A DNA stretch of 36,850 bases. Source: Corallococcus terminator (GTDB taxonomy: Bacteria > Myxococcota > Myxococcia > Myxococcales > Myxococcaceae). Below the pieces are notes generated by a model. The model searched no databases. It was not told where the DNA came from and saw nothing but the letters and a program-made list of their open reading frames with translations. Shown here piece after piece: positions 12,101 through 32,131 of the stretch. Where the stretch lies: the NCBI RefSeq assembly GCF_003611635.1, contig NZ_RAVZ01000056.1, positions 1-36,850 of the forward strand. The letters are read 5' to 3'. The position numbers and the translations under genes are program-made. How positions within the stretch are numbered: the stretch's first letter is position 1; every line of letters starts with the position of its first letter.

Positions 12101-12708
12101 TACGCGCGGCCCTGGACTTCGCCGACCTCGTACACGCGGCAGACGCGCTCGTGGTCCACGCGGGCCTGGGCCCGTGCTTCGGCGACGAAGCGTCGTGACA
12201 GCTCCGGGTCTTCGTCGCGCACGAACTTCAGCGCCACGTCGCGGTGCAGTCGTACGTCGTGCGCCAGGAACACGCGCCCCATGCCGCCCTGTCCGAGGAA
12301 GCGCACGGGGCGGTAGCGTTCCCAGTACGGCACCGGGAACGCGGGGCCGTCCACGCTCGTGGGCGGAGCACCGCCCGGAGGCAGGGTGTCGTCGGGGCCG
12401 GACCCTGCGCCCTCGGGAGACAAGGGGGCCGGGGCGGACTGTTTACGATCGCTGTCGGCCCTGTCCTCGCGCGGCTCGGCCGACGCGGGGGACTCCGCCT
12501 CCATGACCTCTTCCGAGGCCGCATTCGCCACGAGCTCCCGGCGCAGCGCCACGAGCGAATCGACGGAGAGCCGTCCGCGCTCCACGAGGACCTGGAGCGG
12601 TGCGACACCGCGCCGCGCGGCCTCTTCGCGCAGGGCCTCCACGTCCTCACGCGAGAGCAGTCCCTCGGCCAGGGCGAGCTTCAGCTCCGCTTCGTTCTTC
12701 TCATGCAC
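9112..12708 (-). CDS. Membrane-anchored Ser/Thr protein kinase with C-terminal TPR repeats
   Basis: The product is 1198 aa from GTG 12708 (V/M-H-E-K-N-E). Residues 1-55 are a charged helical domain often seen before myxobacterial kinases. A Pro/Ser linker follows, then a full Hanks-type kinase: glycine loop GQGGMGRV near 140, VALKF lysine near 158, HRDLKPSN (Asp249), DFG (Asp271), and MAPEQARG. A single transmembrane helix sits at about 416-437 (AVAVASIVGLAAAG). The rest, about 700 residues, is helical TPR-like repeats that probably bind protein partners. All catalytic residues are present, so the kinase should be active. The frame remains open further upstream to 12903, but that part overlaps the divergent hydrolase gene and lacks the domain pattern. 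It is convergent with the VCBS gene, with stops 7 nt apart. Confidence 0.93.
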   Translation of the reverse strand: MHEKNEAELKLALAEGLLSREDVEALREEAARRGVAPLQVLVERGRLSVDSLVALRRELVANAASEEVMEAESPASAEPREDRADSDRKQSAPAPLSPEGAGSGPDDTLPPGGAPPTSVDGPAFPVPYWERYRPVRFLGQGGMGRVFLAHDVRLHRDVALKFVRDEDPELSRRFVAEARAQARVDHERVCRVYEVGEVQGRAYIAMQYVAGQPLQALSGLLSVEQKALVLRDAALGVHAAHQAGLIHRDLKPSNILVERAEDGALRPYVMDFGLARDWTGSEGFTATGTVMGTPQYMAPEQARGEVTRLDRRADLYSLGATLYHLLTGQAPVPGANGLEVFSRIATHEPRPPRELAPEVPADLEAIVLKCLEKDRARRYDSARALADDLERFLDGERVLARTGPAYRVRKWVARHRRAVAVASIVGLAAAGAAGQGVMARREVSRREALTRRFTEGVERIEAQARYSGQAPLHDTRPDREAMRSRMRDIEASMREAGTVADGPGHYALGRGFLALGDDAAALQHLEAAWAAGNHEPRVAYALALVLGHRYQRERLEADRIPDASQREAKRKEAQARSRDPALAFLKQGQGAEVPAPEYADALRAFYEDRFDEALKSLDALGTRLPWFHEAALLRGDILLARAVRHALASERDQARNDLDAGRHAYDTAADIGRSVSAVHRARAELEQEALLLELSGQGDVQPAYTQGMEAVWRARVAAPDEADTWVLEARLHRRLAQVRVSSGGEVEPLLTRTLDAAKEALKLAPDKVEARHALAMGWWQWARYRQGRGEDPREQLHAAVAAFDTIPESARDYDFHLDLGLVFKVWADSEDGRGGDSLPFRGKAIDAFREARKRDGQRLEAWINLGTAYVNRANHPQALEPDKDLEEARSSLEHASQLDPGHVVTWFYLADVHRTLALRVRDHGGDAGPGLARALECYRKAVAINPRLPPLLNGVGTVLLDQAREAWDRGDAPEPLLDEAEQAFTQAITTAPTVGFAHNNLGEVRAWRATWRLARGEDPTASAKQAQAALQKATALLPGLAQPWANLGQVHQTLAAFALKRGGNPGPDTARATEALTKALEINRSLAQAWRWLGETQAVDARWKASRSSTSDEGFQLAADSFQKALDLEPTNLEQRLAYGAFLRDRATWREAPGQDARKQLQQGLSLTEAVLTARPGWKDANRLREDLRRVLARLPPD

Positions 12709-12833
12709 GCGAAGAGGCCCCCATGGGAAGGGCAGCGTACTGGAGGGACCTGTCGCTGCGCATCCCACGCGAGGACACATGCTGGACGCGCCACGGCTTG
12801 CGGCGGCGGGCCGCCCGTTCCCAAGATGGGCGC

Positions 12834-13640
12834 ATGAGTTCCATGTGGGTCCTGGAAACGCCGCAGCCACCGCCCGACGCGCGCATCGCCTACGGTGAGG
12901 CACCGCAGCAGTTCACCGAGCTGCGCAAGCCCAAGGGCAAGGGCCCCCACCCGGTGGTGCTCTTCGTCCACGGCGGTTTCTGGCGCGCGGAGTACGGCCT
13001 GGAGCACGCGGGCCACCTGTGCGCGGACCTGGCGAAGCGCGGCTTCGCGACGTGGAGCGTGGAGTACCGGCGCGTGGGCCACGATGGAGGAGGCTTCCCC
13101 GGCACGCTGGAGGACGTCGCCTCCGCGGCGGATCATCTGGTGGACGCCGCGCCCTCGCTGGGCCTGGACCTGACGCGCGTGGTGGCGATGGGCCACTCGG
13201 CCGGCGGTCATCTGGCGATGTGGCTGGCCGCCCGCCACCGGCTCACCGCGCGTCAGCCGCTCTACCGCGACGCACCCCTCAAGCTGAAGGGCGTGGTGTC
13301 CCTGGCGGGCGTGGTGGACCTCGCAAGGGGCGCCGAGCTGAACCTGGGCAATGGCATCGTGAAGACCTTCATGGGCGGCACGCCGGAGCAGGTCCCCGAA
13401 CGCTACGCCGTCGCGTCGCCCGCCGCCCTCCAGCCACTGAAGCTGCCGCAGGTGCTGCTGCACGGCACGGAGGACGACACCGTGCCCCTCACGGTGAGCG
13501 AGGGCTTCCACGCCCGGGGCGTCCAGCAGAAGGATCCGGTGCACCTCGTGCCGCTGAAGGGCGCGGGCCACTTCGAGCTCATTGATCCACGCTCCAAGGA
13601 GTGGCCCCGCGTGGTGCAGGCCGTGCGGACCCTGCGCTGA
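12834..13640 (+). CDS. Alpha/beta hydrolase (esterase/acylhydrolase type)
   Basis: The 268-aa product has the alpha/beta hydrolase layout: an oxyanion-hole motif HGGFW, nucleophile elbow GHSAGG (Ser122), acid in GTEDD (Asp214, or the adjacent Asp215) and a C-terminal His in GAGHFEL (His246). The HGGxW motif and length resemble the BD-FAE/kynurenine-formamidase-like esterases; the substrate cannot be told. No signal peptide is seen, so it is likely cytoplasmic. ATG 12834 was chosen because homology-like sequence begins right after it; MSSM allows ATG 12843 as an alternative. It is transcribed divergently from the kinase across about 125 nt and precedes the CqsA-like gene by 114 nt. Confidence 0.88.
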   Translation: MSSMWVLETPQPPPDARIAYGEAPQQFTELRKPKGKGPHPVVLFVHGGFWRAEYGLEHAGHLCADLAKRGFATWSVEYRRVGHDGGGFPGTLEDVASAADHLVDAAPSLGLDLTRVVAMGHSAGGHLAMWLAARHRLTARQPLYRDAPLKLKGVVSLAGVVDLARGAELNLGNGIVKTFMGGTPEQVPERYAVASPAALQPLKLPQVLLHGTEDDTVPLTVSEGFHARGVQQKDPVHLVPLKGAGHFELIDPRSKEWPRVVQAVRTLR

Positions 13641-13754
13641 GCGCCTGCCACGGCCGGTACCGCGCGGGGCAGTGCATCGCCAGTCTCCCCGGAGAGGGGG
13701 CTGCGAGCGGTTCCGTGCCGGCTGTCCGCGCGAAACCGCTGATGGAGGCCGAAC

Positions 13755-14996
13755 ATGCTGGAGCCGCACACCGGGAGCGACCCGAACCCCCTGCCTCATC
13801 CCGCCGAGCCGGAGTTCCTCCAGGCGCGACAGGCCGCGCACGAGGAGCGGACGAAGCGCTGGCGCAGCTCCCGTCACATCCTGTCCAGCATCGCGCCCGG
13901 ACCGGACGCCATCATGATCAACGGCAACGACTACCTGGGACTGGCGCGCCACCCCCGGTTGGTCGAAGCCGAGGTGGAGGCCCTGCGGCGTGATGGCCAG
14001 GGCGTCCTGGTGTCGGGCGTCTTCCTGCATGGGAAGGAGCCCCAGCCCGCGCTGGAAGAGCGTCTGGCGGACTTCCTCCGGGCGGAGACCACCGTGCTGT
14101 GCCAGTCCGGCTACAACGCCAACGTCGGGCTGCTGATGTGCATCGCGGACAAGGACGTGCCCGTCTACACGGACCGCCGGGCGCACATGTCGCTCTGGGA
14201 CGGCATCCGGGGCGCGGGGGCCACGGCGGTGCCCTTCCGCCACAACGACGTGGCGCACCTGAAGGAACAGATTCGCGCCCACGGGCCGGGCGTCATCGTG
14301 GTGGACTCCGTCTACAGCTCCGACGGCAGCGTCTGTCCCCTCACGCAGGTGGCGGACCTGGCCGCCCAGGAGGGCTGTGTCCTCGTCGTAGACGAGTCGC
14401 ATTCGCTGGGCACGCATGGTCCGCGCGGCGCCGGGATGGTGGTGGAGCTGGGCCTGTTGGACCGGGTGCACTTCCGCACCGCCAGCCTGGGCAAGGCCTT
14501 CGTGTCGCGCTCGGGCCTCATCACCTGCACGAAGCGCTTCGCGCCCTACTTCAAGATGCGCTCCGGGCCCGCCGTCTTCAGCGTGACGCTGGTGCCCCAG
14601 GACATCGCGGGGCTGGACGTGGCGCTGACCCTGGTCCAGGAGGGCGACGTGCGCCGCGCCCGCCTCCACGCGAACGCCCGCTTCCTGCGCCATGAGCTGG
14701 CGTCGATGGGCTACGACCTGCACGGCTGCGCCTCGCAGATCATCTCCCTGGAGTCCGGGCTGGAGCCACGCACGGTCACCTTCCGGGACGCGCTGCAGAA
14801 GCGGGGCATCTTCGGCTCCGTGTTCTGCGCACCGGCCACGTCGCCCGACCGCGCGCTCATCCGCTTCTCCATGCACAGCCGACTGACGGCCGAACAGCTC
14901 GTCCGCATCGTGCGCGCCTGCCGCGACATCCGCGAGGAGGTGGACGCGGACCACTGGGGCCTGCCGCCGCGCCCACCGCCCGCGCACCCCTCGTGA
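13755..14996 (+). CDS. cqsA: CqsA-like alpha-hydroxyketone autoinducer synthase (PLP-dependent)
   Basis: The 413-aa protein belongs to the alpha-oxoamine synthase group of PLP enzymes, which condense an acyl-thioester with an amino acid or SAM-type donor. PLP residues are present: NDYLGL, CQSGYNANVGL, AHMSLW (ring-stacking His), DESHSLGTHGP (Asp213, His216) and the Schiff-base lysine in TASLGKAF (Lys247). Several stretches, notably AHMSLW, PFRHNDV, VDSVYS, DESHSLGTHGP, VHFRTASL and GIFGSVFCAPAT, match my memory of Vibrio CqsA, the CAI-1 synthase, better than BioF, Kbl or HemA. No CqsS/CqsR receptor gene is nearby. GGAGG lies 6 nt before the ATG. The first 30 residues (Pro-rich) and the last 20 are lineage extensions. 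BioF-like activity remains possible. Confidence 0.85.
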   Translation: MLEPHTGSDPNPLPHPAEPEFLQARQAAHEERTKRWRSSRHILSSIAPGPDAIMINGNDYLGLARHPRLVEAEVEALRRDGQGVLVSGVFLHGKEPQPALEERLADFLRAETTVLCQSGYNANVGLLMCIADKDVPVYTDRRAHMSLWDGIRGAGATAVPFRHNDVAHLKEQIRAHGPGVIVVDSVYSSDGSVCPLTQVADLAAQEGCVLVVDESHSLGTHGPRGAGMVVELGLLDRVHFRTASLGKAFVSRSGLITCTKRFAPYFKMRSGPAVFSVTLVPQDIAGLDVALTLVQEGDVRRARLHANARFLRHELASMGYDLHGCASQIISLESGLEPRTVTFRDALQKRGIFGSVFCAPATSPDRALIRFSMHSRLTAEQLVRIVRACRDIREEVDADHWGLPPRPPPAHPS

Positions 14997-15014
14997 CAGC
15001 AGCCAGCCAGCCGA

Positions 15015-15128: not shown

Positions 15129-15977
15129 ATGGCGACGATGGACGTGATGCGCGGGCCAGGGATGGAGCGGCTGTCGCGTGGGGCGAAGGAGGCCGCGAAC
15201 CACCCGTGGGCGAAGAAGCTGGGGCGGATGGGCTACGCGGCGAAGGGCGCCGTCTACGCCATCATCGGGGTGCTCGCGCTGAAGCTGGCGGCGGGCGAGG
15301 GCGGTCGCGCCACGGACAGCCATGGAGCGGTGAGCACCGTGGCGCAGGGGCCCTTCGGCATCGTGCTGCTGTCGGTGCTGGTGGTGGGCCTGCTGGGCTT
15401 CGTCGTCTGGCGCTTCGCCCAGGCGTTCGCGGACACCGAGGACAAGGGCTCCGACGCCAAGGGCATCGCCACGCGCGCCATGTACTTCCTCAGCGGCGCC
15501 ATCTACGCGTCGCTGGCCCTGTTCGCGCTGAAGACCGTGGTGGGCGCTTCACAGGGCCGGAGCAAGGGGACGCAGGGCTGGACGGCGACGCTGATGGAGC
15601 AGCCCTTCGGCCGCGTCCTGGTGGCGCTCGTGGGCCTGGGCATCATCGGCTTCGCGGTGAAGCAGTTCCACAAGGCGTGGCAGGGCAAGTTCCTGGAGAA
15701 GCTCACGCTCACCGGCCTCGCGGCCCAGCAGCGTCACTGGGTGGAGCGGGTGTCGCGCTTCGGCATCGCCGCGCGCGGCGTGGTGTTCTCCGTCATCGGC
15801 ATCTTCCTGGTCCGCTCCGCCGTGGACGCGAACCCGGGAGAGGCCAAGGGCCTGGGAGAGGCCCTGGCCGTCGTCGCCCGCCAACCCGCGGGCGACGTGC
15901 TCCTGGGGGTGGTGGCGGCGGGCCTGGTGGCCTACGCCGCCTACCTGTTCCTCCAGGCGCGCTACCGGGAACTCTAG
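15129..15977 (+). CDS. DUF1206 membrane protein
   Basis: The 282-aa product is built of three tandem units. Each has a short basic amphipathic entry (LGRMGYAAKGAVYAIIG, GIATRAMYFLSGAIY, VSRFGIAARGVVFSVIG), a first transmembrane helix, a loop with a conserved small G/Q-P-FG element, and a second transmembrane helix. That gives six helices and is the hallmark of DUF1206, whose function is unknown. GGAGGA lies 8 nt before the ATG. The stop codon overlaps the stop of the opposing glutamine synthetase gene by 4 nt (CTAG at 15974-15977), leaving no room for a terminator between them. Confidence 0.9.
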   Translation: MATMDVMRGPGMERLSRGAKEAANHPWAKKLGRMGYAAKGAVYAIIGVLALKLAAGEGGRATDSHGAVSTVAQGPFGIVLLSVLVVGLLGFVVWRFAQAFADTEDKGSDAKGIATRAMYFLSGAIYASLALFALKTVVGASQGRSKGTQGWTATLMEQPFGRVLVALVGLGIIGFAVKQFHKAWQGKFLEKLTLTGLAAQQRHWVERVSRFGIAARGVVFSVIGIFLVRSAVDANPGEAKGLGEALAVVARQPAGDVLLGVVAAGLVAYAAYLFLQARYREL

Positions 15978-24527: not shown

Positions 24528-24547
24528 GTCGTCAGGACGTTGGCCGG

Positions 24548-24580
24548 TTCCTGCCGGGTGCCCGAGCCGCCCGGTAGGAA
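24548..24580 (+). terminator. 11-bp hairpin between the VOC gene and the MoxR operon
   Basis: TTCCTGCCGGG (24548-24558) pairs with CCCGGTAGGAA (24570-24580), with one G-U wobble and an 11-nt loop, 20 nt after the VOC stop. It argues that the MoxR operon downstream is not part of the TetR-controlled unit. Confidence 0.6.
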
Positions 24581-24629
24581 ATCCACCCGCCTTGCGACGA
24601 CGCACGAAGGCAGCCAGGACGTTTGCCGG

Positions 24630-25745
24630 ATGTCAGACGGAGTGGATAGCGTGCAGTCCATGCCGGACATCCGCCTGCCTGCCGAAGCGAAGTACAAGAA
24701 CGAGTTGGACGCCCTCGCGGCGCATGACGACAAGCCCCGCCCACCGGGTTGGGCGCTGTCGCCCCGCGCGGTGGAGATGTACATCCTGGGAAGTCCCAAG
24801 CCCGTGGGCGGCGTGACCATCACGCCCAAGTACGTGGGCGACCGGGGCATCGTGCAGGTGTGCATCGCGACGCTGGCGTCGGACCGGGCGCTGATGCTGG
24901 TGGGTGAGCCGGGCACCGCGAAGAGCTGGCTGTCGGAACACCTCTCCGCGGCCGTCAGCGGCACGTCTGGACTTGTCGTGCAGGGCACGGCGGGCACCAG
25001 CGAGGACCACATCAAGTACTCGTGGAACTACGCGCTGCTGCTCGCGCAGGGGCCGTCACCGGAAGCGCTGGTGCCGTCGCCCATCCTGCGGGCGATGCGC
25101 ACGGGCAAGTTCGCCCGCTTCGAGGAGGTGACGCGCACGTCGCCGGAGATTCAGGACTCGCTCATCTCCATCCTGTCGGAGAAGCAGGTGTCGGTGCCGG
25201 AGCTGGGGGAGATCACCAGCGCGCAGCGAGGCTTCAACCTCATCGCCACGGCGAACACGCGCGACCGGGGCGTCAACGAGATGAGCGCCGCGCTCAAGCG
25301 CCGCTTCAACTTCGTCACGGTGCCGGTGGTGGAGGACCTGGAGCAGGAGATTCAAATCGTCACCAAGCGCGAGGCGGAGCTGCGCACGGACTACCAGGTG
25401 GGCGTGCCCCCGCCGGAGGAGCTGTCGCGGGTGCTGCTGACGCTCTTCCAGGAGCTGCGCAAGGGCGTGACGAAGGACGGCAAGACGAAGGTGCGAACGC
25501 CGGGGGCGGTGCTGTCCACGGCGGAGGCCATCAGCGTGCTGTTCAACAGCGCCATCCTCGCGCAGCAGTTCGGCTCCGGCACGGTGACGTCGCAGGAGCT
25601 GGCGGCCTCGCTGGTGGGCGCGGTGGTGAAGGAGCAGGAAGACGACGTGAAGGCGCTGCGCGAGTACATGGAGACGGTGGCCAAGGGCCGGCCGGGTCCG
25701 TGGAAGGAACTGTACACCGCGAGCAAGAAGCTCCTGAGGGGCTGA
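24630..25745 (+). CDS. MoxR-type AAA+ ATPase (YehL-like), first gene of the MoxR-DUF5682-VWA-SWIM operon
   Basis: The 371-aa product couples ATP hydrolysis to remodelling of a partner. It carries Walker A GEPGTAKS (Lys98), a Walker B-like FEEV where the usual Asp-Glu reads Glu-Glu (165-166), sensor 1 in IATANTRDRG and an arginine finger region LKRRFN. The segment PKYVGDRGIVQVCIATLASDRALMLVG and VQGTAGTSEDHIKYSWNYA are typical of the group found next to DUF5682 and VWA genes. Start is uncertain: ATG 24630 (AGGA 10 nt upstream), GTG 24651 (GGAG 8 nt upstream) or ATG 24660. The stop overlaps the next ATG by 1 nt, so translation is likely coupled. The predicted partner is the VWA protein of the same operon. 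Confidence 0.9.
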   Translation: MSDGVDSVQSMPDIRLPAEAKYKNELDALAAHDDKPRPPGWALSPRAVEMYILGSPKPVGGVTITPKYVGDRGIVQVCIATLASDRALMLVGEPGTAKSWLSEHLSAAVSGTSGLVVQGTAGTSEDHIKYSWNYALLLAQGPSPEALVPSPILRAMRTGKFARFEEVTRTSPEIQDSLISILSEKQVSVPELGEITSAQRGFNLIATANTRDRGVNEMSAALKRRFNFVTVPVVEDLEQEIQIVTKREAELRTDYQVGVPPPEELSRVLLTLFQELRKGVTKDGKTKVRTPGAVLSTAEAISVLFNSAILAQQFGSGTVTSQELAASLVGAVVKEQEDDVKALREYMETVAKGRPGPWKELYTASKKLLRG

Positions 25746-28051
25746 TGGACTTCGCCCTGCTCTCCCGGGTGCAGCACTTCCCGGTGCGTCACCACTCGCC
25801 GCGCACCACCGCCGTGCTCCAGCGTTGGCTGGAGCGGGTGAAGCCCGAGGTCGTCCTCGTGGAGGGGCCCTGCGACGCCACGGGCATGGTGGACGTGCTG
25901 TGCGACGCGCAGACCCGGCCGCCCGTGGCCATCCTGGGCTACCGCACGGACGGCACGCCTTCATCCTCGCTGTGGCCCTTCGCCGCCTATTCGCCGGAGT
26001 ACCAGGCGCTCAAGTGGGCCCGGGCGAACGACGCGTGGGTGGAGTTCATCGACATCCCGGTGGGCGTCAGCCTTGCGCTGGACCGCGACGCGCCCGGTCT
26101 GGGACTGGAGGCCGAAGCGACGGAGGGAGGCCCGGCGGCTCCCGATGACACGGTGCCCCTGACGGACGCCTTCGCGCGCTCCCAGGGCTACCGCTCGTTC
26201 GAGGAGTTCTGGGAGGCGGCCTTCGAGGCGCCGGACTGGAGCCCGGAGCAGTTCCGGCCGGTGCTGCTGGCCTGGGCGGACGTCATCAACGCGGGTCCCC
26301 GGCAGGACTACCACCGCCAGCGCGACGCCTTCATGGCGCGCAAGGTGCTGGAGGTGTTGGCCAGCGGCGTGCCTCCGGAGAAGGTGGTGGTGGTGGCGGG
26401 CGCGGCGCACATCGCGGCCTTCCTGGCCAACGACGTGGATCCCGCGCTGGAGGAGAAGCTGCCGGCGGGCGTGCCCTGCGCGGTGACGGTGATTCCGTTC
26501 AGCTTCCCCCGGCTCGCGGAGCAGTTGGGCTACGGCGCGGGCAACCGGGCGCCGCAGTTCTACCAGAAGGCCCACGATGCCCACTGCGACTTCCGGCGGG
26601 CCACGCTGGAGGTGCTGCTGGACTTCGCCAGCCACCTGCGGATGCGCGGCTTCACCGCGTCGCTGTCGGACGTGCTGGAGGCGTACCGGCTTGCGGTGAT
26701 GCTGTCGGACCTGCGCGAGAAGAGCGCGCCCGGCCTGGATGAGCTGCGCGAGGCGACGGTGGCCACGCTGTGTCGGGGCGACGCGACGCACGTGGACGGC
26801 TTCCTGTGGAAGAGCGTCATCGGCCATCAGGTGGGGCAGGTGGCGAGCCGCATCGGACAGAACTCGTTGCAGGCGGAGTTCTGGCGCGAAGTGGGCGAGC
26901 GGAGGCTTCCGCGCACGGACAGCCCGGAGAGCTTCGCGCTGCGCCTCAACAACGACGTGGAGGTGGGCTCCTCCGTGTTCCTCCACCGGCTGCGCGTGGC
27001 GGGGATTCCCTACGCGACGCTGTCGGGTACGGGCTCGCGTTCACAGGCGGCGACGGAGGCGGGAGGCTACGCGGCGCTGACGCGGGTGCGCGAGTCCTGG
27101 CAGGCGCAGTGGACGCCGTCCACGGACGTGGCGCTGGTGGAGAAGATCGTCCTGGGCGATTCGCTGGAGGGCGTGACGACGCGCGTGCTCCAGGAGCGGC
27201 TGAACCTGGCCAAGACGACGGCCCAGGCGGCGGACGTGTTGCTGGAGTCCGTCATCACCGGCTGTCCCCAGACGGTGGCGTCCGCGCTCCGGGCCTGTGA
27301 CGCGCACGCGGCCACGGACGCGGACCTGCCCTCGCTGGCGTCGGCGGCGCGGGCGCTGTCGGGGCTGATGGCCTACGGCACCTCGCGGGCGCACTCGGAG
27401 GTGGGGGACGAGGCGGTGGCGTCGCTGGGTGAGAAGACCTTCGGCCGGGCGCTGTTGCGCGTGCGCGAGGCCAGCGTGTGCGACGCCGAAGCGGTGCCCA
27501 GGGTGCTGGAGGCGCTGCGCACGCTGCACGAGGTGGCGCTGTCCCAGCCGCGCGCGGACAAGGCGGGCTGGTACGTGGAGGCGCGGGGGCTGATGGAGAG
27601 CCACGCGGTGCACCCGGCGACGTCGGGGCTCGCGACGGGCCTGCTGTACCTGGCGCGGGAGCTGCCTGAGTCCGACGTGGCGCTGGAGGTGGGGCGCCGG
27701 CTGTCGCTGGCGGTGGAGCCGGCGGACGCGGCGGCGTACCTGGAGGGCTTCCTCCAGGTGAACGCGCTGGTGCTGGTGAAGAGCCGCGAGGTGGTGAAGG
27801 CGCTGGACGACTTCCTCTGCGGCGTGGAGCCGGAGCGCTTCGTGCAGACGTTGCCGGTGCTGCGGCGTGCGCTGGGCACGCTGGGGGCCACGGAGCGGCG
27901 CTACCTGATGGAGAACGTGATGGGCGCGCGGCAGTTGAAGGACAAGGGCCGCGCGGTGAAGGCCGTGCTGGAACAGAAGGACAAGGAGACGTTGAAGGAC
28001 ATGAGCGCGGAGCTGGGCAAGGCGCTCGATGACCTGGACGACCTGCTATGA
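25745..28051 (+). CDS. DUF5682 family protein (YehM-like), putative hydrolase of the MoxR operon
   Basis: The 768-aa product opens with FPVRHHSPR (His16, His17) followed by VVLVEGP (Glu40), then SPEYQAL, and a VVVVAGAAHIAAF strand-loop with His222. This set of invariant His/Glu near the ends of beta strands resembles the EreA/ChaN/TraB/TIKI superfamily of metal-dependent hydrolases; that link is inference from motif pattern. After residue 290 the protein is alpha-helical and repeat-like, and probably docks on partners. It overlaps the ATPase gene by 1 nt and the VWA gene by 4 nt (ATGA), consistent with a stoichiometric complex. The function is experimentally unknown as far as I am aware. Confidence 0.87.
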   Translation: MDFALLSRVQHFPVRHHSPRTTAVLQRWLERVKPEVVLVEGPCDATGMVDVLCDAQTRPPVAILGYRTDGTPSSSLWPFAAYSPEYQALKWARANDAWVEFIDIPVGVSLALDRDAPGLGLEAEATEGGPAAPDDTVPLTDAFARSQGYRSFEEFWEAAFEAPDWSPEQFRPVLLAWADVINAGPRQDYHRQRDAFMARKVLEVLASGVPPEKVVVVAGAAHIAAFLANDVDPALEEKLPAGVPCAVTVIPFSFPRLAEQLGYGAGNRAPQFYQKAHDAHCDFRRATLEVLLDFASHLRMRGFTASLSDVLEAYRLAVMLSDLREKSAPGLDELREATVATLCRGDATHVDGFLWKSVIGHQVGQVASRIGQNSLQAEFWREVGERRLPRTDSPESFALRLNNDVEVGSSVFLHRLRVAGIPYATLSGTGSRSQAATEAGGYAALTRVRESWQAQWTPSTDVALVEKIVLGDSLEGVTTRVLQERLNLAKTTAQAADVLLESVITGCPQTVASALRACDAHAATDADLPSLASAARALSGLMAYGTSRAHSEVGDEAVASLGEKTFGRALLRVREASVCDAEAVPRVLEALRTLHEVALSQPRADKAGWYVEARGLMESHAVHPATSGLATGLLYLARELPESDVALEVGRRLSLAVEPADAAAYLEGFLQVNALVLVKSREVVKALDDFLCGVEPERFVQTLPVLRRALGTLGATERRYLMENVMGARQLKDKGRAVKAVLEQKDKETLKDMSAELGKALDDLDDLL

Positions 28052-29262
28052 GCGTGGACCCCAAGGACCTGGAACCGAAGGACCGCGACGCGCTCCTGCG
28101 CTGGCGGCTGGCGCTGGGCCCGGAGGCGGAGAAGACGGGGTCGTGCCCGTCGCTGGGCGGGCTGGGCGGCGGCGCGACCGCGCTGGGCCTGGCGGACGGG
28201 GACCTGGAGGAGCTGGATGACACGCTCTCCTTCGTCTACGGCGAGCGGTCCGCGGGCCGGGGCGGCTCCAAGCCCTACCTGCCCAAGTGGCTGGGCTCGC
28301 TGCGCGACTTCTTCAAGGACGACGTCATCGCGCTGGTGCAGAAGGACGCCATCGAGCGCAAGGGCCTCACGCAGCTTCTCTTCGAGCCGGAGACGCTGCC
28401 GTTCCTGGACAAGAACGTGGAGCTGGTGACGACGCTCGTCAGCGCGCGCGGGCTCATCCCCGACCAGGCGAAGGACCTGGCGCGCGGCATCATCCGCGAG
28501 GTGGTGGAGGACCTGCGCAAGAAGCTGGAGTCCCCCCTGCGCACGGCGGTGCTGGGCGCGCTGCGCAGGGACAGGACGAGCCCCATCCCCATCGCGCGCA
28601 ACATCGACTGGCGGCGGACCATCCGCTCCAACCTGAAGGGCTGGGACGCGGAGAAGAAGCGGCTCATTCCGGAGCGCTTCTACTTCTGGCCCAACCAGCG
28701 CCGTCACCACGAGTGGGACGTGACGCTGGTGGTGGACCAGTCCGGCTCCATGGCGGAGAGCGTGGTGTACAGCTCCGTGATGGCGGCCATCTTCGCGTCA
28801 CTGGACGTGCTGCGCACCAGCCTGGTCCTGTTCGACACGGAGATCGCGGACATGACGCCGGTGCTGGCGGACCCCGTGGAGGTGCTCTTCTCCGCGCAAC
28901 TGGGCGGCGGCACGGACATCAACCGGGCGGTGGCCTACGCGCAGGAGCACTACGTGCGCCGGCCGGAGAAGACGCTCTTCATCCTCATCACCGACCTGTA
29001 CGAGGGCGGCAATGCGGAGGAACTGGTGGCGCGGCTGCGGCAGTTGGTGGACTCGCGCGCCCGGGTGTTGTGCCTGCTGGCGCTGTCGGACAGCGGCCGG
29101 CCCTCGTATGACCATGCGATGGCGGAGCAGCTCACCGCGCTGGGGATTCCGTGCTTCGGGTGCACGCCCAAGAAGCTGGTGGACGTGGTGGAGCGGGTGA
29201 TGCGCAACCAGGACCTGACGCCGCTCATCGCGTCCACGAACAAGGAGGACCGTCATGGCTGA
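28048..29262 (+). CDS. VWA-domain protein (YehP-like) of the MoxR operon
   Basis: This 404-aa cytoplasmic protein has a helical N-terminal half (with SVTYG-like FVYGERS and RTAVLGALRRDRTSP) and a C-terminal von Willebrand A domain. The metal-ion-dependent adhesion site is complete: DQSGS (Asp230, Ser232, Ser234), GGGTD (Thr289) and TDLYEGG (Asp316). VWA proteins encoded with MoxR ATPases act as adaptors that link the ATPase to its client. Overlaps at both ends (4 nt with DUF5682, 8 nt with the SWIM gene) place it in the same transcript. The ribosome binding site and start are within the upstream coding sequence. Confidence 0.92.
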   Translation: MSVDPKDLEPKDRDALLRWRLALGPEAEKTGSCPSLGGLGGGATALGLADGDLEELDDTLSFVYGERSAGRGGSKPYLPKWLGSLRDFFKDDVIALVQKDAIERKGLTQLLFEPETLPFLDKNVELVTTLVSARGLIPDQAKDLARGIIREVVEDLRKKLESPLRTAVLGALRRDRTSPIPIARNIDWRRTIRSNLKGWDAEKKRLIPERFYFWPNQRRHHEWDVTLVVDQSGSMAESVVYSSVMAAIFASLDVLRTSLVLFDTEIADMTPVLADPVEVLFSAQLGGGTDINRAVAYAQEHYVRRPEKTLFILITDLYEGGNAEELVARLRQLVDSRARVLCLLALSDSGRPSYDHAMAEQLTALGIPCFGCTPKKLVDVVERVMRNQDLTPLIASTNKEDRHG

Positions 29263-32131
29263 CGTGCGGCCCGTGATTGGAATGGGAGCGCTGCTGGAGA
29301 TCATCAGCGACAAGGCGGAACTGGCCAAGGGCGCGGAGATGTTCGACCGCAAGCTGCTCGCGAACCTGTCGCGCTATGAGAACCGGCTGTTCGCGGACGC
29401 GGCGGGCTCCGGGGCGACGCCCTACAAGGTCTCGCTGGTGTTCGGCGAGGCGCGCTCGGACGTGAAGGGACGCTGCTCGTGCATGGCGGCGCGCTCGCGC
29501 CCGTTCTGCAAGCACGCGGCGGCGCTGCTGGTTGCGTGGGCCCGCGCGCCGGACGCCTTCGTGACGGCGGAGTCGGCCCCGGTGGCGCCGGGCGGCACCG
29601 GCACGAAGAAGAGCGTGAAGAAGGGCAAGGCGGAGACCGGCGAGCTGATGAAGGCGGGCGTGGCGCAGGTGTCCACGCTGGTGCGGGAGCTGGGCCTGTC
29701 GGGCGTGGCGTCGCTGGGCGCGGAGCGGCCCGAACAGGTGCGCGCGCTGGGCGAGGCGCTCAGGGCCAACGGCCTGCGGCGGTTGTCCGCGCGGGCGGTG
29801 GAACTGGCGGGCCTGCTGGACGCGGCGGTGGCGCGCACGGGGACGTTCGAGGCCCCGGCGTTCACGGACCTGGTGGCGGACATGCTGCTCACGGCGCGCA
29901 AGGTGGAGAAGCACCTGGGCGGTGACGCGCTGGAGTCCCGCCACGTCGAGGAGCTGATTGGCAAGACGTGGACGAAGAAGGACCGCGCGCCGGTGACGGG
30001 GCTGACGCTGGTGGAGTACGCGTTCTCCTCGCGCGTCACGCCGGACCGGTTCCTCATCCGCGAGAGTCGCTTCGTGGACCTGGTGTCGGGCGGGCACTAC
30101 AGCGAGAAGCAGATCCTCCCCGCGATGCTCAAGACGGTGGTGCCCAAGAAGAGCCACGCGGGCTACGTGCTCCAGGGCGCGACGGGCGGGCAGTACCCGG
30201 GCTTCGCGCCGCACCGGCTGGACCTGGAGGAGTGGACGGGCGGTTCGCCAGTGGACCGCAAGCCCCTGGAGCGGTTGCTGGAGGTGGCGCTGCCGGACGT
30301 GAGCGCGGCGATGGCGGCCTTCCAGGAGCACCGCAAGGACGTGTTCGCGCCGGACCTGCTGCCGGTGGTGGTGCGGGTGGAGACGCTGCTGGCCAGCGGG
30401 TCCCGCTCGCAGTTCGTGGATGGCGCGGGCCGGGCGCTCTTCCTGCCCGCGGATGCTTCGCTGGAGGAGCCGCTGTCCGCGGCGCTGGAGGGCTCGAAGC
30501 TGCTGGCCGTGCTGGGCGACGTGGGCCTGGAAGCGGCGCTGCCCACGCTGTTCCCCCTGGCCGTGGTGGTGGAGACGCCGGAGGGCCTGGGATTGCGCGC
30601 GCTGGGCCGGGCGGAGGATGCGCCGGTGGTGTCCCGGCGGCGGGGACGGGTGCGGCCTCCGGTGACGCCCAGCGCCCTGCCTCGCAGCGGGTGGTCGGAG
30701 GCGGCCCGGGCGGCGGGGGCTTCGCGCGCGGCCATCGCGCTGGCGGAGGTGCGGGACGAGCTGGCGGACGCGTTCGCCAGCGGGCTCGCGGCGGTGGGGA
30801 CGCGGACGGTGGAGCCGCTGGTGGCGCGGCTGCGCGAGCTGGGCCTGGAGAAGCCGGGGGCGCTGCTGGAGGCGCTGGCGCAGCGGCCCGACCCGGGCGA
30901 GCGGCTGGACGACTTCATCAAGGTCTACCAGGTGCTGGGCATCGCGCTGGTGCGGCTGTCCGGCGCGGTGCAGGTGGAGGTCTCCGCGCTGGAGTCCGTG
31001 CCCACGCACCCGAGCATCCACGTGCAGCGCCCGGAAGTCGCGCTGTCACCGGGCGAGGCGATGGTGCGCCGGGCGCGCGGGGAGCTGACGCGCTACGAGG
31101 CAGCGGCGCACGCGGCGCGCTACTACGCCAGCCTGGGCGTGGACGCGCTGATGCGGGACTACTACCCGACGTGGAGCGACGGGGCGGCGAGCGCCTTCGT
31201 GGCACGCGTGGTGGCGACGCGAGGCGAGGCGGCGCTGGAGTCCGTGAAGGGCGCGCTGGCCGAACACCACAGCCGCATGGTGCGTCGCACGGCCCTGCGC
31301 ACCCTGGGCGCGATGGGAGGACCGCAGGCGAGGCGCGAGCTGGATGCGATGACCCGCGGTGGCCACGACGCGGGCCTGCGCCTCTTCGCGAAGGAGACCC
31401 TGGAGGATGTGCGCTCCCGGGAGTCGGGGGAGGCGGCGGTGGCGGAGTTGATGCGCATCCGCCGCGAGAAGGTGCAGCCGTTCGCGCAGGCGGCGCTGTC
31501 CGAGTCGACGAAGGAGGCGCGCGCGGCGGCGGTGAACACGCTGGCGGACCATGGCGCCGTGGCGATGCCCGTGCTGCGCCAGGTGTTGTACGGAGACCCC
31601 TCGCGCGAGGTGCGGCGGGACGCGGCGCAGGCGCTGGCGCGGATGGGGGACTCGGAGGTCATCGACCGGTTCGTCAACATGGTGCAGGCCCGCAGCGCGA
31701 ATGACGACGACGCGAAGACGGCCGTGTACGCGCTGGGCATGCTGGGGGATGTGCGGGGCGCGGAGGCCCTGCTCGCGGCGTTCGCGGACGGGTGGAAGCC
31801 CGGCGTCGTCGCGGAGTCCATGCGCACGTTGGGACTGGCGCTCCTTCAGCCCGCGCTGAACCTGGCGGAGTCGCGTCCGGAGGTGCTGGAGCGGCAGGCC
31901 CTGCGCGGCCTCTTCGAGACCTTCCCCACGGCTCCCCTGGCGAAGGAGCTGCTCGCGCGCGTGGAGGCGTCGCTCGGACATCCAGACCTCGTGGACCGGG
32001 CGGCCGTGTACCTGAAGCTGGCGGCCCAGAACGCGGCGGTCGGAAAGCAGGTGGCCGCGCGCCTCCTGGAGCTTCCCGCCGTGTCCGGGGACAAGGCCCT
32101 GGCCCGGCTGGCGAAGAAGGTCCTGGGGTGA
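29255..32131 (+). CDS. SWIM zinc-finger and HEAT-repeat protein (YehQ-like) of the MoxR operon
   Basis: The 958-aa product has an N-terminal SWIM zinc finger, Cys74-S-Cys76-x8-Cys85-K-His87, in the context GRCSCMAARSRPFCKHAAALLVAW. SWIM fingers bind DNA or proteins. A Thr/Lys linker and a large helical domain follow. From about residue 590 the sequence is regular alpha-alpha repeats of the HEAT/armadillo type (MVRRTALRTLGAMGG, VRRDAAQALARMGD, AKTAVYALGMLGD), a protein-binding scaffold. AAGGAGG lies 6 nt before the ATG inside the VWA gene, and the reading frames overlap by 8 nt. It is the last gene of the operon, followed by a hairpin. The combination suggests a substrate- or nucleic-acid-recognition subunit. 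Confidence 0.9.
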   Translation: MADVRPVIGMGALLEIISDKAELAKGAEMFDRKLLANLSRYENRLFADAAGSGATPYKVSLVFGEARSDVKGRCSCMAARSRPFCKHAAALLVAWARAPDAFVTAESAPVAPGGTGTKKSVKKGKAETGELMKAGVAQVSTLVRELGLSGVASLGAERPEQVRALGEALRANGLRRLSARAVELAGLLDAAVARTGTFEAPAFTDLVADMLLTARKVEKHLGGDALESRHVEELIGKTWTKKDRAPVTGLTLVEYAFSSRVTPDRFLIRESRFVDLVSGGHYSEKQILPAMLKTVVPKKSHAGYVLQGATGGQYPGFAPHRLDLEEWTGGSPVDRKPLERLLEVALPDVSAAMAAFQEHRKDVFAPDLLPVVVRVETLLASGSRSQFVDGAGRALFLPADASLEEPLSAALEGSKLLAVLGDVGLEAALPTLFPLAVVVETPEGLGLRALGRAEDAPVVSRRRGRVRPPVTPSALPRSGWSEAARAAGASRAAIALAEVRDELADAFASGLAAVGTRTVEPLVARLRELGLEKPGALLEALAQRPDPGERLDDFIKVYQVLGIALVRLSGAVQVEVSALESVPTHPSIHVQRPEVALSPGEAMVRRARGELTRYEAAAHAARYYASLGVDALMRDYYPTWSDGAASAFVARVVATRGEAALESVKGALAEHHSRMVRRTALRTLGAMGGPQARRELDAMTRGGHDAGLRLFAKETLEDVRSRESGEAAVAELMRIRREKVQPFAQAALSESTKEARAAAVNTLADHGAVAMPVLRQVLYGDPSREVRRDAAQALARMGDSEVIDRFVNMVQARSANDDDAKTAVYALGMLGDVRGAEALLAAFADGWKPGVVAESMRTLGLALLQPALNLAESRPEVLERQALRGLFETFPTAPLAKELLARVEASLGHPDLVDRAAVYLKLAAQNAAVGKQVAARLLELPAVSGDKALARLAKKVLG

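What the first reader, a model, noticed from the sequence alone, without database searches (positions are those of the whole stretch)
13755..14996. CqsA-like autoinducer synthase in a myxobacterium, without its receptor
The PLP enzyme matches Vibrio CqsA over several long motifs (AHMSLW, DESHSLGTHGP, VHFRTASLGKAF, GIFGSVFCAPAT) and not BioF or Kbl consensus, as far as I can recall. CAI-1-type alpha-hydroxyketone signalling is not a standard myxobacterial pathway. No CqsS-like histidine kinase or LuxU is in the window. It could be a real signal, a cue produced toward prey bacteria, or an enzyme for another ketone.
Basis: partly seen in the sequence, partly recalled or inferred. Interest (0 to 1): 0.75.

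Follow-up and report, generated by a model that had tools for sequence, protein, structure and literature searches.

The report
Solo CqsA signal synthase in myxobacterium
A predatory soil bacterium carries a single gene for making a quorum-sensing signal of the kind used by Vibrio and many betaproteobacteria, but no recognisable receptor for it, so the product may be aimed at other bacteria.

Summary
The ORF at 13755-14996 (+, 413 aa) is a CqsA/LqsA-type synthase: 515.6 bits against a curated cut-off of 428, while BioF, Kbl, ALAS and SPT models stay far below theirs. It keeps the PLP lysine and, with conservative changes, the published acyl pocket. It forms one clade with two Myxococcus-genus proteins (100/99). 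It is rare: 3 of 96 family and 3 of 195 phylum genomes. A 2020 survey reporting more than three CqsA homologues per Myxococcaceae genome (PMC7694542) was probably counting paralogues. No CqsS/LqsS sensor domain was found in the draft genome or in the two other carriers; three of three control genomes gave E 5.7e-53 or better. In 70 of the 80 closest loci from named genomes such a sensor lies near the synthase. The gene is a roughly 1.3-kb single-gene cassette missing from 15 of 15 congeners, 10 of which have the flanks essentially abutting. Most likely it makes a CAI-1/LAI-1-like ketone acting on other bacteria; product and target are untested. Closest precedent: the solo AHL synthase AgpI of Archangium.

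The parts
13755..14996 (+). cqsA-type alpha-hydroxyketone synthase gene, 413 aa; PLP lysine K247
   Evidence: NF005526 515.6 bits, cut-off 428; PDB best hit 3hqt; K247 aligns with V. cholerae K236
13744..13748 (+). Shine-Dalgarno-like GGAGG, 6 nt before the ATG
   Evidence: read by eye in the sequence printed
13641..14998 (.). extent of the single-gene cassette absent from congeners (left edge between 13640 and 13670, right edge between 14955 and 14999, depending on the congener)
   Evidence: matching DNA of 15 of 15 congeners stops and resumes at these edges
12600..13640 (+). upstream neighbour: alpha/beta hydrolase (BD-FAE) ORF, true start probably internal; matching DNA at this place in the congeners, so not part of the cassette
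   Evidence: PF20434 101.5 bits; flank match (tested from 13000) in 15 of 15 congeners
15129..15977 (+). downstream neighbour: DUF1206 protein; matching DNA at this place in the congeners, so not part of the cassette
   Evidence: PF06724 198.2 bits; flank match in 15 of 15 congeners

Best explanation
The gene encodes a working CqsA/LqsA-type synthase that joins SAM (or 2-aminobutyrate) to a medium-chain acyl-CoA on PLP. The aminoenone product then becomes an alpha-hydroxyketone of the CAI-1/LAI-1 type. It was probably gained as a single gene, without the sensor kinase (CqsS/LqsS) and regulator (LqsR) that normally lie beside it, by a Corallococcus-like myxobacterium. With no such receptor found in the genome, the ketone most likely acts outward, on proteobacteria that sense these ketones (prey or competitors), much as proposed for the solo AHL synthase AgpI. 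Shown: family membership, residues, failure to find the sensor domain with working controls, the empty sites, the distribution. Inferred: catalysis, exact product, direction of the gain, outward role.
For: Model cut-off met, and not met for BioF, Kbl, ALAS, SPT. Pocket H41, L43, F90, M268, V274, F275, C358, P360, A361 against V. cholerae H30, V32, F79, F257, I263, F264, C346, P348, A349, and K247 against K236 (pocket list from PMC3285556, passages; K236 from PMC3376566, passages). M at the 257 position is within the family's range: F 35, C 22, Y 13, S 7, M 6, V 1, G 1, W 1 of 86. Clade of three myxobacterial CqsA, 100/99. Sensor domain: 0 in the window's genome and the two other carriers, 3 of 3 controls found. 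LqsR: controls 1.8e-160 and 6.6e-154; the three myxobacteria give receiver-region matches only, best 3.2e-12. Purifying selection between the two Myxococcus-genus copies, dN/dS 0.10-0.22. Sensor near the synthase in 70 of the 80 closest loci, nearly all from proteobacteria by record title. Precedent: AgpI, functional in E. coli, no receptor found in its genome (PMC7862692, passages).
Against: No product has been measured. No constraint test is possible for the window copy itself: its nearest relatives are 56-58% identical. The genome is a draft of 863 contigs. A strongly diverged or non-homologous receptor would be missed. Absence from 15 of 15 congeners, and a likely lost copy in G027, show that the gene is dispensable. 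No specific link to prey has been shown. The neighbouring clade has one more solo case (P. fluorescens C2, L083), so a missing receptor is not peculiar to predators.
Confidence: 0.5

Rival explanations
1. The ketone is a private signal of the myxobacterium, sensed by a receptor unrelated to CqsS/LqsS, for example one of its many histidine kinases.
For: 153, 156 and 154 matches in the three carrier genomes in a full-length CqsS/LqsS search, so many other kinases are on hand. Coralinone, a pyrazinone from Corallococcus exiguus, is presented as a myxobacterial signalling molecule (PMC10979472 and PMC10979478, search listing only).
Against: No CqsS-type sensor domain at E up to 1 in any of the three carriers, nor near the synthase in L015 and L016. 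The gene is missing from 15 of 15 congeners, so no circuit shared by the genus depends on it.
Confidence: 0.2
2. The enzyme makes a ketone or aminoketone used as an ordinary metabolite or volatile, not as a signal.
For: Related alpha-oxoamine synthases make metabolites; the three myxobacterial proteins carry M, not the Vibrio F, at pocket position 257, so chain length may differ. Recalled, not from a call: myxobacteria emit C13 ketones.
Against: Family placement is with signal synthases. No biosynthetic partner sits in the cassette, which is one gene.
Confidence: 0.15
3. The gene is a silent or decaying passenger, gained with no present function.
For: 3 of 96 family genomes carry it; G027 keeps 39 of 44 bp matching the cqsA 3' end including the stop (0 of 1000 shuffles), fitting a former copy that was deleted; other cargo sits at the same site in 5 of 15 congeners.
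Against: Intact ORF, good Shine-Dalgarno, host-like GC3 0.93; conserved active site; purifying selection in the sister pair.
Confidence: 0.12
4. It is a mis-assigned BioF, Kbl or SPT.
For: Same superfamily; hits to these models at 95-242 bits.
Against: All below their cut-offs (399-670 bits), while CqsA is above its own. The genome has a separate BioF over its cut-off, an SPT-like gene and a PRK07505 gene.
Confidence: 0.02

Closest known systems
CqsA (Vibrio) and LqsA (Legionella) alpha-hydroxyketone synthases, NF005526
   Same: Over the family cut-off; V. cholerae CqsA identical at 164 of 378 aligned positions; PLP lysine and acyl pocket kept
   Different: No cqsS/lqsS or lqsR found with it or elsewhere in the genome
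Betaproteobacterial Lqs-type clusters; JqsA of Janthinobacterium (PMC3566124, passages) is the studied example but is not among the 80 loci
   Same: Best non-myxobacterial relatives in named genomes, up to 57% identity
   Different: They normally have a sensor near the synthase (70 of 80 loci) and an LqsR-like gene (8 of 8 loci looked at, all chosen among those with a sensor)
AgpI, solo AHL synthase of Archangium gephyra (PMC7862692, passages)
   Same: Myxobacterium with a proteobacterial-type autoinducer synthase, assumed to be acquired, with no cognate receptor found
   Different: LuxI family, unrelated enzyme and signal class
PMC7694542 survey (passages): 'more than three homologues' of CqsA in each Myxococcaceae genome
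   Same: Already proposed that myxobacteria make CAI-1
   Different: By the curated cut-off 3 of 96 family genomes have a CqsA, though 95 of 96 have some hit to the model; the window genome's other hits are SPT-like, BioF and PRK07505

Membership tests
CqsA/LqsA alpha-hydroxyketone synthase | Score over the curated equivalog cut-off (NF005526, 428 bits) | tested here: met
   515.6 bits
CqsA/LqsA alpha-hydroxyketone synthase | PLP-binding lysine (V. cholerae K236) | tested here: met
   K247
CqsA/LqsA alpha-hydroxyketone synthase | Acyl-chain pocket residues listed in PMC3285556 | tested here: met
   6 of 9 identical; V32L, F257M, I263V are hydrophobic changes seen in other members
CqsA/LqsA alpha-hydroxyketone synthase | Placement inside the CqsA clade, apart from other alpha-oxoamine synthases | tested here: met
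   The outgroup was the genome's own BioF, SPT-like and PRK07505 proteins, with long branches, so the root is weak; Kbl and HemA were only in the model comparison
CqsA/LqsA alpha-hydroxyketone synthase | Makes an aminoenone or alpha-hydroxyketone from acyl-CoA and SAM or 2-aminobutyrate | not testable with these tools
   needs an enzyme assay
CqsA/CqsS or LqsA/LqsS quorum-sensing system | CqsS/LqsS-type six-helix sensor kinase | tested here: not met
   0 matches at E up to 1 in the draft genome; 3 of 3 control genomes found
CqsA/CqsS or LqsA/LqsS quorum-sensing system | LqsR-type regulator (only in some clusters) | tested here: not met
   receiver-region matches only, best 3.2e-12, against 6.6e-154 or better in two controls
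CqsA/CqsS or LqsA/LqsS quorum-sensing system | LuxU/LuxO relay (Vibrio) | not tested
   no search made
BioF / Kbl / ALAS / SPT | Curated cut-offs of those models | tested here: not met
   241.7 of 426; 224.6 of 460; 166.7 of 339; 205.4 of 500

The most novel reading that the evidence does not exclude
A predatory myxobacterium has taken up a solo alpha-hydroxyketone synthase and uses its ketone to jam, lure or disarm prey that count their own numbers with Lqs/Cqs-type signals, a second case beside AHLs of predator-made prey signals.
Probability: 0.3. Interest if true: 0.8.

Novelty: new variant of a known kind. Interest (0 to 1): 0.5.

Why it matters
The paper searches (listings, open-licence library only) showed no described alpha-hydroxyketone synthase without its receptor in a myxobacterium, apart from the survey's general claim of CAI-1 production. 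It makes 'do predators produce prey quorum signals?' testable with one gene, a clean empty-site comparison in close relatives, and two sister genes at another locus in Myxococcus-genus species. It also argues that a published statement about CAI-1 in myxobacteria is too broad.

Tried and rejected
BioF/Kbl/SPT identity: rejected by cut-offs. A sensor near the gene in M. eversor (L016 10382-10702, E 0.025) looked possible; the printed ORF holds no sensor motif by eye and is counted as no sensor. Remnants of cqsA in sister species: only G027 passes (3' end 0 of 1000 shuffles, 5' end 1 of 1000, plain letter shuffles); G023 and G025 do not. So 'gain before the G027 split, then loss' rests on one case; an insertion that took local DNA as its 3' end, or old presence with many losses, is open. 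A promoter and terminator scan around the gene found nothing, but covers sigma-70 types only. A literature search for tridecan-4-one in myxobacteria found no paper; one for stigmolone or hydroxy ketones was off topic (listing).

The sensor model therefore covers 141 positions; the motif positions printed are wrong and were redone (the pocket letters there are right by residue); the tree was redone with clean rows, dropping 29 of 89 rows (26 CqsA rows close to others, and the three paralogues). The paralogues were scanned as the matched stretch only, so their scores may be low.

The 80 loci are the best 80 of 466 relatives. Of the ten without a sensor, seven have under 1.5 kb downstream of the synthase (L017, L034, L050, L053, L058, L060, L090), one has 3.8 kb (L041), and two have the full 10 kb on both sides (L024 = M. 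eversor, L083 = P. fluorescens C2).

Full report
What it is. The ORF at 13755-14996 (+) is an intact 413-codon gene with host-like codon-position GC (0.71/0.48/0.93). It scores 515.6 bits on NF005526, 'alpha-hydroxyketone-type quorum-sensing autoinducer synthase' (cut-off 428), and is under the cut-off of every other alpha-oxoamine synthase model it hits. The nearest solved structure by sequence is V. cholerae CqsA, E 2.3e-97, against 2.9e-47 for the next family. The PLP lysine is K247. Of nine acyl-pocket residues listed for V. cholerae CqsA (PMC3285556, passages), six are identical and three change to other hydrophobic residues (V32L, F257M, I263V). Among 86 CqsA rows these three letters also occur in other members. 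No structure could be predicted.

The genome's other relatives. Three further loci match: one SPT-like (L002, below every cut-off, partial sequence scanned), one BioF over its cut-off (L003), one PRK07505 over its cut-off (L004). Only the window gene passes the CqsA cut-off.

Who else has it. Over the cut-off: 3 of 96 family genomes (one search agrees by protein search) and 3 of 195 phylum genomes, the window's own genome counted in both. The phylum search asked for 400 genomes and examined 195. The three are the window's genome G000, G055 and G061. G055 is taken as Myxococcus eversor AB053B, because its contig has the same length (212053) as the named record L024. The window's genus is probably Corallococcus: a congener's single contig of 10,080,619 bases fits C. 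coralloides DSM 2259 as I recall it; no call names the genus. At E up to 0.001, 95 of 96 family genomes have one to eight hits to the same model. This probably explains the report of more than three CqsA homologues per genome in PMC7694542 (passages). I did not repeat that paper's BLAST or see its table. Seven plasmid-collection records also encode relatives at E up to 1e-60: five Vibrio, one Cupriavidus, one Tistrella.

Tree. In a careful tree of 60 CqsA rows the three myxobacterial proteins form one clade (100/99). It joins, with weaker support (84/88), a clade of two Cupriavidus, Burkholderiaceae PBA and P. fluorescens C2. A quick tree with the three paralogues as outgroup agrees (99; 81) but has long outgroup branches. 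The gene sits in different surroundings in the two genera: hydrolase and DUF1206 in the window; beside a TetR-like gene (by eye) in M. eversor, with the same gene and two genes in between in G061. The two Myxococcus-genus copies show purifying selection (dN/dS 0.22 by NG86, 0.10 by YN00). The window copy is too far from them for a useful estimate.

No receptor. I made a profile of the CqsS/LqsS N-terminal membrane domain from 29 sequences (A3). It finds nothing at E up to 1 in G000, G055, G061 and G198 (P. fluorescens C2), while three control genomes give 8.6e-56, 4.1e-55 and 5.7e-53, and one control shows a second, more distant protein at 1.3e-34. An LqsR profile (A4) gives 1.8e-160 and 6.6e-154 in two controls. 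In the three myxobacteria it matches about 60 to 118 residues around the receiver region, best 3.2e-12 in G000. Among the 80 closest loci from named genomes (of 466 relatives), 70 have the sensor near the synthase, within about 2 kb and usually 1.1-1.4 kb downstream on the opposite strand (60 of 70 downstream and opposite). Seven of the ten exceptions are cut short by contig ends.

A single-gene cassette. Against 15 congeners the DNA on both sides of cqsA is conserved (85-95% identity), but the stretch from 13640-13670 to 14955-14999 is missing in 15 of 15. In 10 of 15 the two sides abut or are separated by at most about 80 bp. In 5 of 15 other genes fill the gap: a Septu PtuA/PtuB pair in G017, LysR-type and efflux-type genes in G016, G019 and G030 (by likeness of the printed starts; Pfam run on G016 only), and NmrA plus TetR genes in G022. 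So the spot takes up and loses cargo. The closest relatives by flank tree are G023, G027 and G025 (100/97). G027 keeps 44 bp, 39 identical, matching the cqsA 3' end from tryptophan codon 401 to just past the stop (0 of 1000 shuffles), and a weaker match to the 5' side (1 of 1000). G023 and G025 show none above chance. A former copy deleted in G027 is the simplest reading, but it rests on one case.

How it most likely works. By established CqsA chemistry (PMC3376566, passages) the enzyme would join a medium-chain acyl-CoA to SAM. The aminoenone turns spontaneously into a diketone, and a dehydrogenase reduces that to the hydroxyketone. No reductase lies in the cassette; I did not search the genome for one. 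With no CqsS/LqsS-type sensor, the host should not respond through the known route, and the readiest targets are other bacteria that carry such sensors. This is inference. The nearest precedent is AgpI, a functional solo AHL synthase of the myxobacterium Archangium gephyra whose AHLs were not detected in pure culture (PMC7862692, passages).

Verdict. The finding is a new variant of a known kind: a true CqsA-family gene without its signalling partners, rare in myxobacteria and probably gained as one gene.

Noticed in passing
L143:1178-3351 (G017), same site as window 13641-14998: The intergenic spot that holds cqsA here carries a Septu PtuA/PtuB defence pair in one congener and other cargo in four more (G016, G019, G022, G030): a small insertion hot spot.
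   Followed up: partly
L150:268-5502 (G014) and L149:4021-9411 (G015): Two species of another family genus have a second-tier CqsA-like synthase (300-303 bits, below cut-off). In G014 it is followed by an SDR nearest to 3-ketodihydrosphingosine reductase (below that cut-off) and a large protein with a PigE-like aminotransferase part; a possible new aminoketone pathway.
   Followed up: partly
window 24540-32131: Run of MoxR-type AAA ATPase, DUF5682 protein, VWA/CoxE protein and HEAT-repeat protein genes on one strand; no strong hit to the defence library.
   Followed up: no
L083 (Pseudomonas fluorescens C2): Another CqsA over the cut-off (558.6 bits) with no sensor within 10 kb or in the genome, and no LqsR match at E up to 1e-5.
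   Followed up: partly
G195:C3:203676-204086 (Paraburkholderia fungorum genome, L148): A second CqsS/LqsS-type sensor domain in an 860-aa frame on another contig than the synthase cluster: a possible orphan ketone receptor.
   Followed up: no
L041 (Nitrococcus MAG): Synthase with 3.8 kb downstream yet no sensor found, unlike its close relatives L037 and L082.
   Followed up: no
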